Of a DNA stretch of 9,826 nucleotides, positions 240-7,584 are shown in pieces. The notes under the pieces are model-generated. The model made no database searches. It saw only the letters and a program-made list of their open reading frames with translations, and had not been told where the DNA came from. Within the stretch, counting starts at the first letter, position 1. Each line of letters begins with the position of its first letter. Made by a program: the position numbers and the translations under genes. Source of the DNA: Streptosporangiaceae bacterium (lineage in GTDB: Bacteria; Actinomycetota; Actinomycetes; Streptosporangiales; Streptosporangiaceae); contig JASIGD010000316.1 in the NCBI GenBank assembly GCA_030045295.1, positions 1-9,826 on the forward strand, given 5' to 3'.

Positions 240-1718
240 TCAGGCGTACGTTCCGGCCTCGTCAGCCGGGGGGCAGCCTGCCTGGATCAAACGCTCGATA
301 TCGTCGCCGAACGGCCGGTCGCCGCTGATCGGGCCGATCAGTCCGGCCAGCCAGTCCAGCAGCGGTCGGCATCCCGGTGGCGTCGGGCGTCCGGACAGCG
401 CGGCGGCCTGATAGCCGACCAGCAGCTCGCAGGCCGTGACCGCGCGAGCGTGGCGCAACGCGGCGGAGAGCTTCTCGGCAGCTTCCCAGGCAAAGGACTG
501 CACGTCCTCCTGGCCGCCGGACGTCTCGATCAGGCCGACCGCGGTGGCGACCGCAAGGCGCCGCATGGCATGGACCTCGCCGGCCGCCCGTTTGTGGACG
601 GGCGCAAGGCCGGCTTCGGGACCCGGCTCACGGGCGAGCTGCGCGGGCAGACCCGTAACCGCGGGATCCATCAGCCGGTGGATGCGCGCCGCTGCCACCT
701 CCGCCGCATGGCAGAACGCCGCGGTGAGCTGGTCGAAATGCGCGGATAGGTCAATTCCGTGGAACCCGGCAGTACCGGTGAATCGTCCGCCGAGCCAGGC
801 GGGAGAATCGGTGACCCCGGTCAGGGACCGATGGGCGGCCGCCTCCAGCTGGGCGGCAGCCCGGAGTACCTGGGCCAGCACCGGGCCGGCGACCCTGAAC
901 GACACCGGCGCCTGCAGCGACCGCGGCGACGGGTCATCGCCCGCGGCCGCGCGGAGCCGCCCGAGCACCGCAGCAAGAATCTCATCGCCGCGCCCGCATG
1001 CGGCGCGGTAGGGATCGCGCGGCGCCCTGGCCGCGGCGATAGACAGCGCCGCGGCCGCCTCCATGAGCGAGGTAAGCGCCGCAGCCTCGCCGAGGCGCAG
1101 CGCGCACAGGCCGGTGGCCCCGGGTACGCCCTGGATCAAGGCGATGCCCTCCTTGGGACCGAGGCGGAATTCGCTCAGCCCACGGTTCCGCAGTGCCTGC
1201 CTTGCGGGCCGCAGGCCGCCGTCTGGCTCGAGCACCTGGCCGATGCCCGCGATAGGCCCGAACGCATGCGCCAGCTGCATGATCTCGCCCGCCGACCCCG
1301 CACCGGTGCGGGGGACCGCGGGGACGATGCGGTGGTCAAGGAAATCGGCGAGCCGCTGGCACAGCCCGCCGGACACGGCGGCATCGCCGGTCAGGAACGT
1401 CAGCAGCCTGACGGTGATGATCGCCCGGACCTCGAATGGGTCGAGCCACGGCGGACCGCCTGTGGCCCGCGCCAGAAGCAGGTTGCGCTGCTGGGAAATC
1501 TGCTGCTGTTCGGTCAGCCGGACTGAGGAAAGAGCTCCCATGCCGGTGTTCACGCCGTACACCGGCAGCCCGTCGCGCAGCGCCCGCCGGGCCTGCCGGC
1601 AGCGCTGCTGAGCCGCCGCGAGCAGGCCTGGCCCGATGCTGACGCGCTGGCCGGCGGCGACGGCCCGGATGAGCCCGAGATCCGGATCGCCGACCTGGGT
1701 GATGGTGACGGTGGACAT
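240..1718 (-). CDS. Ammonia-lyase (HAL/PAL) fold protein with non-canonical SAG triad
   Basis: 492 aa from the ATG at 1718 (a GTG lies immediately upstream at 1721), close to the ~500 aa usual for histidine/phenylalanine ammonia-lyases. These enzymes use a methylidene-imidazolone (MIO) made from Ala-Ser-Gly to eliminate ammonia from aromatic amino acids. Family landmarks are clear: YGVNTGMG near residue 54, KEGIALI near 190, DPY at 235-237, GFHG at 318-321 and QED at 403-405. However, the MIO triad aligns to Ser-Ala-Gly (142-144, in GSAGEIMQLAH), the His of LSHAAG is Arg84, the Asn of ALINGT is Gln196, and the Arg after DPYxx is Ala. So the fold is certain but classical lyase chemistry is not; it could be an aminomutase-like, pseudo-enzyme or differently modified relative. 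The upstream gene's TAA abuts the GTG-ATG, and no strong Shine-Dalgarno is visible, which implies translational coupling. Confidence 0.85.
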   Translation of the reverse strand: MSTVTITQVGDPDLGLIRAVAAGQRVSIGPGLLAAAQQRCRQARRALRDGLPVYGVNTGMGALSSVRLTEQQQISQQRNLLLARATGGPPWLDPFEVRAIITVRLLTFLTGDAAVSGGLCQRLADFLDHRIVPAVPRTGAGSAGEIMQLAHAFGPIAGIGQVLEPDGGLRPARQALRNRGLSEFRLGPKEGIALIQGVPGATGLCALRLGEAAALTSLMEAAAALSIAAARAPRDPYRAACGRGDEILAAVLGRLRAAAGDDPSPRSLQAPVSFRVAGPVLAQVLRAAAQLEAAAHRSLTGVTDSPAWLGGRFTGTAGFHGIDLSAHFDQLTAAFCHAAEVAAARIHRLMDPAVTGLPAQLAREPGPEAGLAPVHKRAAGEVHAMRRLAVATAVGLIETSGGQEDVQSFAWEAAEKLSAALRHARAVTACELLVGYQAAALSGRPTPPGCRPLLDWLAGLIGPISGDRPFGDDIERLIQAGCPPADEAGTYA

Positions 1719-1721
1719 CAC

Positions 1722-4454: not shown

Positions 4455-4795
4455 GCGCTCGCGTCGTCGTCTACCCCCGGCCGCTTAAGGCACGGGGCCT
4501 GACGGCCCCGGTCGCCAGGCGGCGCACGCGGCGCAGCAGGTTCACGGTCGGCTCGACGGCGGCCGGGCACAAACCAGCCTGGCCGCTGGCCGCCAACGCC
4601 GACGGCCCAGGCTCGGACGCCACGGGCTCAGGCTAAACCGAAGGGTCGCATCAGCGACATTGTCCCTTCCAGGGGGCACGGTGGCAAGACAGGCCCGGGA
4701 TCGCGCGGCCCCGGCGGCGGCCGATTCGACTCGCAGCGGTCGGCGGCAGCACACTGTCACCAGACGGCCCCTTACCACCCGGAAGGGAGTAGGCG
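4455..4795. other. Intergenic region before the thioredoxin-fold gene
   Basis: 341 bp without a convincing gene. It holds a terminator-like hairpin at 4493-4510. A second inverted repeat pairs GGCGGCC near 4558 with GGCCGCC near 4588. A G-U containing hairpin sits at 4661-4678 (TGTCCC, TCC, GGGGGCA). The ribosome site GGAAGGGAG is at 4781-4789. No clear -10/-35 pair was seen. Open frames crossing this stretch lack ribosome sites and family resemblance. Confidence 0.4.
4493..4510 (+). terminator. Hairpin downstream of the small membrane protein
   Basis: Seven GC pairs (4493-4499 with 4504-4510) close a TGAC tetraloop, 39 bases after the TGA stop. No U-tract follows. Likely the transcription end of the small gene. 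Confidence 0.5.
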
Positions 4796-5386
4796 ATGGA
4801 AACGATCTCGTGGCGGCCTGCCGACCTGGACGCCGCCCGCCAAGAGGCAGAACAGGCCGGGACACTGGTGCTCGTGGACTTCTTCTCCCCCACTTGAGGC
4901 GGCTGCGCGGCGCTGAAGAACGTCAGCTACCGCGAGGCGGCGGTCGTCGCCACGATCACCGAGAACTTCGTGCCGGTGCAGATCGACACCACCGACGAGG
5001 CCAACGCGCCGCTGGTCGAGCGCTTCCGCCAGATCTGGACGCCGGACCTGCGCGTCCTTGGCCCGGATGGCTTTGAATACGACGCCTGGCAGGGATACTG
5101 GCCGCCTGCCGAGTTCACCGCCAGGCTCCTGCTCGGACGGGCCCGCGCCCTCGCCCGGCAGCACCGCGACCTGGATGCCGAGCTGGCGTACGACGAGGTC
5201 CTGCGCCGTTTCCCGCGCACCTACGCCGCGCCCGAGGCGGCCTACTGGCGAGCCGTATGCCGCTACCGGCGGACCCACCGGCCCGATGACCTGATCGGAC
5301 GCTGGAAGCGCACTCTGCAAACCCGGTATCCGGACAGCCAGTGGCGCACCGCGCAATCCTGGTCCGAACCCCCGCTGCGCGAATAA
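4796..5386 (+). CDS. Thioredoxin-fold protein with in-frame TGA; probable selenoprotein (UxxC)
   Basis: 196 codons from the ATG at 4796 (AAGGGAG six bases upstream) to TAA, if the TGA at 4895-4897 (codon 34) is read through. Before it comes the first helix and strand of a thioredoxin fold ending LVLVDFFSPT (24-33); after it come GGCAALKNVSYREA, NFVPVQID (57-64) and the cis-Pro loop IWTPDLRVL (80-88, Pro83). The TGA thus replaces the first Cys of a CxxC redox motif, giving U34-G-G-C37. Residues 110-190 are helical and TPR-like (an AYDEVLRRFP segment, then RYPDSQW), as in bacterial thioredoxin-TPR proteins of about 200 aa. No signal peptide, so cytoplasmic thiol redox work is expected. A SECIS-like stem begins 8 nt after the TGA. 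Alternatives are a nonsense mutation of a Cys codon or a sequencing error. Standard callers would report only a fragment starting near the GTG at 4970. Confidence 0.82.
4895..4934 (+). promoter_or_regulatory. Candidate bacterial SECIS element with its TGA
   Basis: After the TGA (4895-4897), 4906-4910 (CGCGG) pairs with 4930-4934 (CCGCG), and 4912-4916 (GCTGA) pairs with 4923-4927 (TCAGC). A one-base/two-base internal bulge (C4911; T4928, A4929) separates the two stems. The apical loop is AGAACG (4917-4922), with G at its second position, 19 nt after the TGA. Known bacterial SECIS elements lie just 3' of the UGA within the coding region, with a small apical loop bearing a G near its 5' end at roughly 16-37 nt; this fits. 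SelB would bind it to deliver selenocysteyl-tRNA. No folding energy was computed. Confidence 0.65.
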
Positions 5387-7068: not shown

Positions 7069-7584
7069 TCACGCCGGTCCGCGCGTGGTCCGGAACCCTA
7101 TCTTGCGATGGCTGCCGTCGCAGAACGGCTTGTTGGCCGAGGCGCCGCACCGGCACAGCGCCACCCGGGTGTCCTGCCTGACCAGCGCGTGGTCCTGGCC
7201 GAAGATCCTGATGTTGCCGCGGATGAACAACGGGCCGTTCGGGCGTTCTTGGACCGTGGTTTGGTCCGGCACCGGCTCCTGCGGCCCGCCGTCCAGGCGG
7301 CGGAAGTGCAGCGCGCCCGTGGGACAGCGCTGGATCACCTCGCCGATCTCACCGGGCGTTCCGTTGTCCGCGATAATCCACGGCCGGCGCCGGTTGTCGA
7401 ACACCGCGGGGAGCCCGCGCAGGCATTCGGCGACATGGATGCAGAACGCAGGTTCCCAGGTGACCTCGATCTGGTCGTTCGCGTACACGCGCTCGGCCGT
7501 CGGCGCGTAGCGCGGCTGCTCGCGGAAACCCTCGGGAGCCTCATCGGGCTCATCGGGCGGAAGCTCGCTGGTTCGTTCGGTCAT
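7069..7584 (-). CDS. Fer4_19 plus CDGSH double-domain iron-sulfur protein
   Basis: 171 aa from the ATG at 7584, preceded by GGAGG seven bases upstream. After an acidic 20-residue leader, residues 33-95 match the divergent monocluster ferredoxin domain (Fer4_19): CIHVAECLRGLPAVF (Cys48, Cys54) and CPTGAL (Cys87). Residues 117-165 are a CDGSH zinc-finger-type domain, with Cys144, Cys146, Cys155 and His159 in CRCGASANKPFCDGSH, the 3Cys-1His ligands of a redox-active, pH-labile [2Fe-2S] cluster. The two domains are often fused in bacteria. It is a soluble cytoplasmic protein, presumably in electron transfer or cluster/redox sensing; the partner is not evident here. All expected ligands are present. 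The 5' side is a long intergenic region with palindromes that may regulate it. Confidence 0.93.
   Translation of the reverse strand: MTERTSELPPDEPDEAPEGFREQPRYAPTAERVYANDQIEVTWEPAFCIHVAECLRGLPAVFDNRRRPWIIADNGTPGEIGEVIQRCPTGALHFRRLDGGPQEPVPDQTTVQERPNGPLFIRGNIRIFGQDHALVRQDTRVALCRCGASANKPFCDGSHRKIGFRTTRGPA

What the first reader, a model, noticed from the sequence alone, without database searches (positions are those of the whole stretch)
4796..5386. Probable new selenoprotein: thioredoxin-fold protein with UGGC active site
Seen: one in-frame TGA (4895-4897) splits an otherwise intact thioredoxin-fold gene, and it falls exactly at the first Cys of the CxxC motif; Cys37 follows as the resolving residue. 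Protein resemblance continues on both sides, there is a good ribosome site before the ATG, and the gene ends with TAA. Six other genes here use TGA as a true stop, so general recoding is excluded. Known: bacterial selenoproteins often carry UxxC in thioredoxin-like folds. Inferred: the TGA encodes selenocysteine. Ordinary annotation would miss the first 58 residues.
Basis: partly seen in the sequence, partly recalled or inferred. Interest (0 to 1): 0.93.

Follow-up and report, generated by a model that had tools for sequence, protein, structure and literature searches.

The report
Overlooked selenoprotein: thioredoxin with helical tail
A bacterial gene that ordinary annotation cuts short has a TGA "stop" at the catalytic position of a thioredoxin-like protein; the same TGA stands in 28 of 29 relatives whose whole gene was read here, so it is very likely translated as selenocysteine, giving a predicted selenium-dependent redox protein of a kind that cysteine-based searches would be expected to miss.

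Summary
One in-frame TGA (4895-4897, codon 34) interrupts an otherwise open 196-codon frame, exactly at the first residue of the CxxC motif of a thioredoxin fold. Of 29 other full-length genes read in whole genomes, 28 carry TGA at that codon and Cys three residues on. One (L024) has Cys, in a genome without detected selA, selB (over cut-off) or tRNA-Sec. All 26 TGA genomes searched for selA have it (background 385 of 643); 27 of 28 have selB over cut-off; 26 of 28 have tRNA-Sec over cut-off (23 clearly). A hairpin after the TGA fits the published bacterial SECIS model and shows compensatory changes. The window's own genome is not held, so its sel genes are untested. The protein is predicted (pLDDT 95) to be a DsbD-gamma-like thioredoxin domain with a short TPR-like tail, an order also seen in CnoX/YbbN. 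Of 152 database relatives none has Cys at the site: 147 start after it, one (P0002) has Trp. Published methods lean on Cys homologues, which would explain the omission. No TPR-fused family appears in the 119-family inventory of 2026. Sec insertion: very likely. Function (tail-assisted thiol/disulfide exchange): inferred.

The parts
4796..5386 (+). whole selenoprotein gene, 196 codons, TGA at codon 34 predicted to be read as Sec
   Evidence: translate with TGA=U; conserved as one unit in 28 relatives
4781..4789 (+). purine-rich ribosome-binding-site-like stretch GGAAGGGAG
   Evidence: sequence; function inferred
4895..4897 (+). in-frame TGA, predicted Sec34 (U of UGGC)
   Evidence: 28 of 29 other full-length genes have TGA here
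4904..4906 (+). TGC, Cys37, resolving residue of UGGC
   Evidence: Cys present in all 29 TGA genes
4906..4934 (+). predicted bacterial SECIS hairpin: outer stem 4906-4910/4930-4934, upper stem 4912-4916/4923-4927, apical loop AGAACG 4917-4922 with G second
   Evidence: fold -25 kcal/mol for 4895-4942, z -2.26, 5 of 200 shuffles as good; 100% paired with 3 pairs changed on both sides in the 4 closest genes
5042..5044 (+). Pro83, taken as the cis-Pro position of the thioredoxin active site (recalled from thioredoxins)
   Evidence: invariant in alignment A5 of 56 rows
4796..5125 (+). thioredoxin-fold domain, about residues 1-110
   Evidence: PF13098 36.1 bits, PF13899 35.6 bits, both over cut-off 27; DsbD-gamma structures by profile and fold
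5105..5365 (+). C-terminal helical TPR-like domain, residues 104-190
   Evidence: model helices 104-190, mean pLDDT 95.1 overall; CpoB/YbgF and BamD TPR by profile, BamD by fold

Best explanation
This gene very likely encodes a selenoprotein: its TGA codon 34 is predicted to be decoded as selenocysteine with the help of an RNA hairpin just downstream, giving a thioredoxin-fold protein whose Sec34-Cys37 pair would reduce disulfides or other oxidised groups, probably in the cytosol. Shown: the conserved TGA, the conserved Cys at +3, purifying selection on both sides, sel genes in the relatives, and a hairpin with compensatory changes. Predicted: a DsbD-gamma-like thioredoxin fold followed by a short TPR-like helical tail; by eye there is no signal peptide (no tool was run for it). 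Inferred: Sec34 is the attacking nucleophile, Cys37 resolves the selenenyl-sulfide, and the tail holds the client or partner protein, as TPR domains do. The near absence of Cys forms suggests that Sec is needed for the function rather than a convenient upgrade.
For: TGA at the same codon in 28 of 29 other full-length genes: L001-L004, six more from a 396-genome phylum sample, 18 more from a 247-genome phylum sample; the exception L024 has Cys. selA: 7 of 7 TGA genomes (E 1.1e-115 or better) against 226 of 396 over cut-off, and 19 of 19 against 159 of 247; hypergeometric p 0.019 and 0.00015, 0.033 and 0.00024 without the two genomes that the samples were centred on; kinship is not corrected. 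selB over cut-off in 27 of 28 TGA genomes. tRNA-Sec over Rfam's cut-off in 23 of 24 and 3 of 4; 67 bits or more in 20 of 24 and 3 of 4. ARAGORN calls the three loci tested tRNA-Sec, anticodon TCA. G003, genome of the nearest relative with a held genome (L003, 79% identity), has selA-like and selB frames and tRNA-Sec on one contig. The Cys-form genome G294 is absent from the selA list, has no selB over cut-off and no tRNA-Sec match at 1e-7. Hairpin: the minimum-energy fold meets the model's loop, G, spacing and energy rules in 28 of 29 genes, against a mean of 38% of other codons of the same genes (model from PMC13188914, figure legend). In 13 more distant genes 96.7% of cells pair and 6 cells change on both sides (0 of 500 shuffles as high for either), and Asp GAT with Tyr TAT against Gly GGT with Tyr TAC match in 12 of 12 genes that have Tyr. 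In the window and its three nearest relatives three pairs change on both sides. dN/dS below 1 both sides. Structure pLDDT 95.1; DsbD-gamma best by fold, YbbN second.
Against: The window's own genome is not held, so its sel genes are untested. Among the TGA genomes, G937 has selB only below cut-off (209.4 bits); G001 and G875 have no tRNA-Sec over cut-off, and G896, G937 and G721 only matches of 51-55 bits, a range that genomes with a clear tRNA-Sec also show as second matches. Fragmentary assemblies may explain this; that was not shown. selA was not sought in G001 and G002. P0002, a full-length database protein, has Trp at the site: a TGG allele, or a TGA read by a TGA=Trp code, undecided. The hairpin rule alone is weak in such G+C-rich genes: 38% of other codons also pass; a stricter single-stem scan passes 21 of 29 and does not single out the window's group (on average 22% of other codons as good); L002 lacks G in the first two loop positions; codon shuffles gave mean z -1.28, below -1 in 19 of 29. 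In the covariation counts the number of pairs changed on both sides (35 of 500 shuffles as high) and of further pair types (481 of 500) do not stand out in the 13-gene set, and the third group of 12 genes shows no compensatory change. All decoding evidence is comparative. The tail's role is by analogy.
Confidence: 0.93

Rival explanations
1. The TGA is a real stop; the gene is a pseudogene or is expressed as a short 33-residue peptide and a separate 138-residue protein started at GTG 4970, as databases list its relatives.
For: Database relatives are annotated so: of 152 retrieved, 147 begin after the site and 2 (P0097, P0098) end at the residue before it.
Against: A start after the site is what a gene finder that stops at TGA must give, not an observation. 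The frame is intact on both sides in 29 genes, the interruption is TGA in all 29 and always at the catalytic Cys position, dN/dS is below 1 upstream in all 13 computable pairs, and the downstream piece lacks the first helix, the first strand and the active site of its thioredoxin fold.
Confidence: 0.03
2. The TGA is read as another residue (Trp, Cys or by general readthrough), without selenium.
For: P0002 shows Trp at the site.
Against: Six genes of the window stop at TGA; all 26 TGA genomes searched have selA; Trp would remove the nucleophile of a site whose Cys at +3 is kept in 29 of 29; the one relative from a genome without detected sel genes has Cys, not TGA; compensated hairpin.
Confidence: 0.03
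3. Selenoprotein, but acting mainly as a chaperone-like holdase of the CnoX type, with the Trx site in a protective rather than a reducing role.
For: Trx-then-TPR order as in YbbN/CnoX, Foldseek rank 2; CnoX described as Trx fused to TPR with holdase and redox roles (PMC8129009, passages).
Against: The tail is one short helical unit, not the two five-helix subdomains of E. coli CnoX; TM-score to 3qou is only 0.41 over the query; Sec where E. coli CnoX has Ser argues for catalysis.
Confidence: 0.25

Closest known systems
Thiol:disulfide interchange protein, Sec form (PF13098, UxxC), Table 1 of PMC13188914; 'Trx-like 2', cd02953, UxxC in PMC2398784
   Same: Same thioredoxin-like domain (PF13098 over cut-off; DsbD-gamma the best fold match) and Sec at the same place of a UxxC motif
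   Different: Adds a TPR-like tail; the GOS table lists 22 Sec and 2,098 Cys forms for Trx-like 2, whereas here 29 TGA genes stand against 1 Cys gene. The reference protein itself was not compared.
CnoX (YbbN) chaperedoxin
   Same: N-terminal thioredoxin domain, C-terminal TPR domain; Foldseek rank 2
   Different: 196 aa against 282 in the chain 3qou; one short helical unit against two five-helix subdomains; U-x-G-C instead of SXXC or CXXC; low TM-score
DsbD C-terminal (gamma) domain
   Different: No membrane domain, Sec instead of Cys, TPR-like tail
Glycine reductase selenoprotein A (GrdA)
   Same: Precedent for a selenoprotein family without known Cys homologues (PMC1088965, passage)
   Different: Subunit of glycine reductase, CxxU motif

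Membership tests
Bacterial selenoproteins | conserved in-frame TGA in several homologues | tested here: met
   28 of 29 other full-length genes
Bacterial selenoproteins | bSECIS hairpin: loop 3-9 nt, stem 4-16 bp, G in the first two loop positions, 16-37 nt from UGA, MFE -7.5 or lower | tested here: met
   window meets it; 28 of 29 genes by MFE fold, background 38% (loop, G, spacing and energy were checked there, stem length not separately); covariation; stricter single-stem scan 21 of 29
Bacterial selenoproteins | selA, selB, tRNA-Sec in the host genome | tested here: inconclusive
   window's genome not held; in relatives selA 26 of 26 searched, selB 27 of 28, tRNA-Sec over cut-off 26 of 28, clear in 23 of 28
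Bacterial selenoproteins | selenium in the protein | not testable with these tools
   needs 75Se or mass spectrometry
Thiol:disulfide interchange selenoprotein (PF13098, UxxC) | PF13098 domain with UxxC | tested here: met
   36.1 bits, cut-off 27; UGGC
Thiol:disulfide interchange selenoprotein (PF13098, UxxC) | homology to the reference sequence over its length | not tested
   reference sequence not fetched
CnoX/YbbN | TPR domain of two five-helix subdomains after Trx | tested here: not met
   model has six helices in all from residue 104 on; definition for E. coli CnoX from PMC8129009 passages
CnoX/YbbN | transfer of clients to GroEL/ES | not testable with these tools
   experiment needed
DsbD | membrane domain between two periplasmic domains (recalled) | tested here: not met
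   196-residue protein, modelled as two soluble domains only
Named Trx-like selenoprotein models of NCBIfam (TsoB, VPGUxxT type 2, Trx7/PDZ) | score over curated cut-off | tested here: not met
   28.9 of 805, 21.9 of 275, 13.1 of 300 bits

The most novel reading that the evidence does not exclude
A widespread, essentially Sec-only protein family: a cytosolic 'seleno-chaperedoxin' in which a selenocysteine thioredoxin site is coupled to a TPR client-binding tail, overlooked because discovery methods lean on Cys homologues that this family hardly has.
Probability: 0.35. Interest if true: 0.85.

Novelty: new variant of a known kind. Interest (0 to 1): 0.72.

Why it matters
It points to a blind spot: the Sargasso Sea search kept only TGA frames with at least two Cys homologues, and the authors of deep-Sep state that it may not identify selenoproteins lacking them (PMC1088965, PMC12013277, passages). 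Here is such a family, full-length in 19 of 247 genomes of one phylum sample, while its database proteins start after the site and, where named, are mostly called hypothetical, TPR or TolA-binding protein. It enlarges the set of families in which Sec seems irreplaceable, and makes the question of why Sec and not Cys testable with one small protein.

Tried and rejected
Pseudogene, general TGA reassignment and sequencing error were considered and rejected (see rivals). Conserved gene neighbourhood: in an all-against-all comparison of ORFs in 25 loci, the clusters reaching 4 or more loci were the gene itself (24 loci), other frames over the same stretch (11 and 5 loci, the first chained to a few ORFs beside it), and sensor- or regulator-like proteins in 4 loci; no steady partner, so context gave no functional hint. 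In the part of the tblastx output that was printed, this gene is the only long match between the window and L001-L003. Direction of change of the one Cys form: in a tree of 36 rows L024 is a very long branch (2.25) of unsure place, so whether Sec was lost or never gained there is open. The single-stem SECIS scan allows no bulge; I then used the full fold and covariation; all results are told. Order-level search around G003 found the whole gene in 1 of 297 genomes, G003 itself, and a partial match in one more, so it is rare among sequenced kin. Profile search of PDB: none of the 60 matches shown (of 86) covers both domains. In the two phylum samples several shorter, weaker matches with a TGA inside were not examined (for example G006, G310; G841, G898, G930) and are not counted; G294's second, decayed copy (L051) is not counted either. 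Repeat search over 4890-4950 found no inverted repeat by its own rules, although the fold does. Novelty in print rests on the search listings; on the whole Table 1 of PMC13188914 with a word search of its text in which TPR and tetratricopeptide do not occur; and on passages of PMC9312934, PMC2398784, PMC1088965, PMC1794560, PMC12013277. Subscription papers and preprints were not searchable, and Table 1's Trx-like entries were not compared sequence by sequence.

Full report
What is there. Window 4796-5386 is an open frame of 196 codons with one interruption, TGA at 4895-4897, codon 34. It stands at the first position of the thioredoxin CxxC motif, giving U-G-G-C. Six of eight other putative genes checked in the window end in TGA. 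The ordinary ORF list begins the gene at GTG 4970, residue 59.

Homologues. A database search of the read-through protein found 97 proteins; a profile search found 144, of which 120 are listed, after scoring only the 7,997 candidates sharing most words. Together 152 were retrieved. Placed on the query, 147 start after residue 34 (two of them at residue 35, keeping Cys37), 2 (P0097, P0098) end before it, P0002 has Trp, and P0062 and P0095 have unrelated-looking, probably misframed N-termini; none has Cys at 34. A scan of one genome per species gave four loci, all with TGA at the codon: two Pseudonocardiales MAGs, a Streptosporangiaceae MAG and a Thermoanaerobaculia MAG. A sample of 396 genomes from the phylum of the third gave 57 with any match; 7 spanned most of the protein with one TGA (including the one already known) and one, G294, without. 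The G294 gene has Cys at the site and Ser at the resolving place (CGGS). A sample of 247 genomes from the phylum of the fourth gave 133 with any match, 19 of them full-length (including the known one), all 19 with one TGA. The other matches cover mostly the thioredoxin domain alone; those that I looked at were DsbD-like, DsbH-like or small CxxC thioredoxins. In all, 28 relatives have TGA and 1 has Cys. All 29 TGA genes keep Cys at +3. Four database entries name other sources (Microthrixaceae, Eremiobacteraceae, Alphaproteobacteria, Thiovibrio), which suggests a wider spread, but those DNAs were not seen.

Machinery. selA was found in 7 of 7 TGA genomes of the first sample, against 226 of 396 over cut-off, and in 19 of 19 of the second, against 159 of 247; p 0.019 and 0.00015, or 0.033 and 0.00024 without the two centre genomes, kinship not corrected. 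selB is over cut-off in 27 of 28 TGA genomes; G937 has a lower match. tRNA-Sec is over Rfam's cut-off in 23 of 24 and 3 of 4, and reaches 67 bits or more in 20 of 24 and 3 of 4; matches of 45-55 bits also occur as second matches in genomes with a clear one, so I lean only on the 23. G003 has selA-like and selB frames and tRNA-Sec together on one contig. G294, the Cys genome, shows none of the three at these thresholds; it is a 2.4 Mb assembly and may be incomplete. The window's own genome is not held.

RNA signal. The published model asks for a loop of 3-9 nt, an upper stem of 4-16 bp, G in the first two loop positions, 16-37 nt spacing and -7.5 kcal/mol (PMC13188914, figure legend). The window fold has -25 kcal/mol, z -2.26, 5 of 200 shuffles as good. 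By minimum-energy fold 28 of 29 genes comply, against a mean of 38% of other codons of the same genes, so the rule alone is a modest test; a stricter single-stem scan passes 21 of 29. Covariation is stronger. In 13 distant genes a 7-bp stem pairs in 96.7% of cells (0 of 500 shuffles as high; slid controls at most 52.7%), and the Asp or Gly codon GAT/GGT matches the synonymous choice TAT/TAC of the Tyr codon in all 12 genes with Tyr; two of five measures there do not beat the shuffles (35 and 481 of 500). In the window and its three nearest relatives 10 pairs hold in all four, 3 of them with changes on both sides (5 of 500 shuffles pair as well). A third group of 12 genes has its own hairpin at a similar distance; 8 pair at all 7 positions, the rest at 5 or 6, without compensatory change. 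Shuffle counts do not correct for kinship.

Reading. Sec at residue 34 is very likely. That it acts as the nucleophile of a thiol/disulfide exchange with Cys37 resolving follows from the thioredoxin family. That the tail binds a client or partner is inferred from TPR domains and from CnoX (PMC8129009 passages). No steady neighbour gene was found, so the substrate is unknown.

Known or new. Table 1 of the 2026 inventory (119 families and subfamilies, read whole) lists many Trx-like UxxC families, none named as TPR-fused, and the words TPR and tetratricopeptide do not occur in the text. By domain and motif alone ours would sort with 'thiol:disulfide interchange protein, PF13098, UxxC', so I call it a new variant and not a new kind. 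NCBIfam's Trx-like selenoprotein models score far below cut-off. The Sargasso Sea search required Cys homologues (PMC1088965), and deep-Sep's authors state that it may not identify selenoproteins lacking them (PMC12013277), which would explain why this family stayed unnoticed.

Noticed in passing
window 240-1721 (-): Aromatic/histidine ammonia-lyase-like protein (PF00221, 281 bits) whose triad region reads GAGSAGEIMQLAH, i.e. SAG where I recall ASG forming the MIO cofactor; it sits next to an ornithine cyclodeaminase-family gene (1722-2891, -).
   Followed up: no
window 7069-7584 (-): Fusion of a divergent 4Fe-4S mono-cluster domain (PF06902) with a CDGSH domain (PF09360).
   Followed up: no
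L024 (G294) and L051: The only Cys form found (CGGS, resolving residue Ser) lies in a genome without detected selA, selB over cut-off or tRNA-Sec; the same genome has a second copy with a decayed N-terminus and stops.
   Followed up: partly
one search matches, e.g. G823:C73:35214-35597, G714:C108:6257-6628, G841:C101: Several other thioredoxin-domain matches, some in long frames, carry one TGA inside the match; possibly further Trx-fold selenoproteins.
   Followed up: no
P0002 (196 aa, 940-base contig): Full-length database relative with Trp at the Sec site; may be a TGA translated by a TGA=Trp code.
   Followed up: partly
selA over cut-off in 226 of 396 and 159 of 247 genomes of the two phylum samples, more than I expected; suggests much unannotated selenoprotein content.
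   Followed up: no
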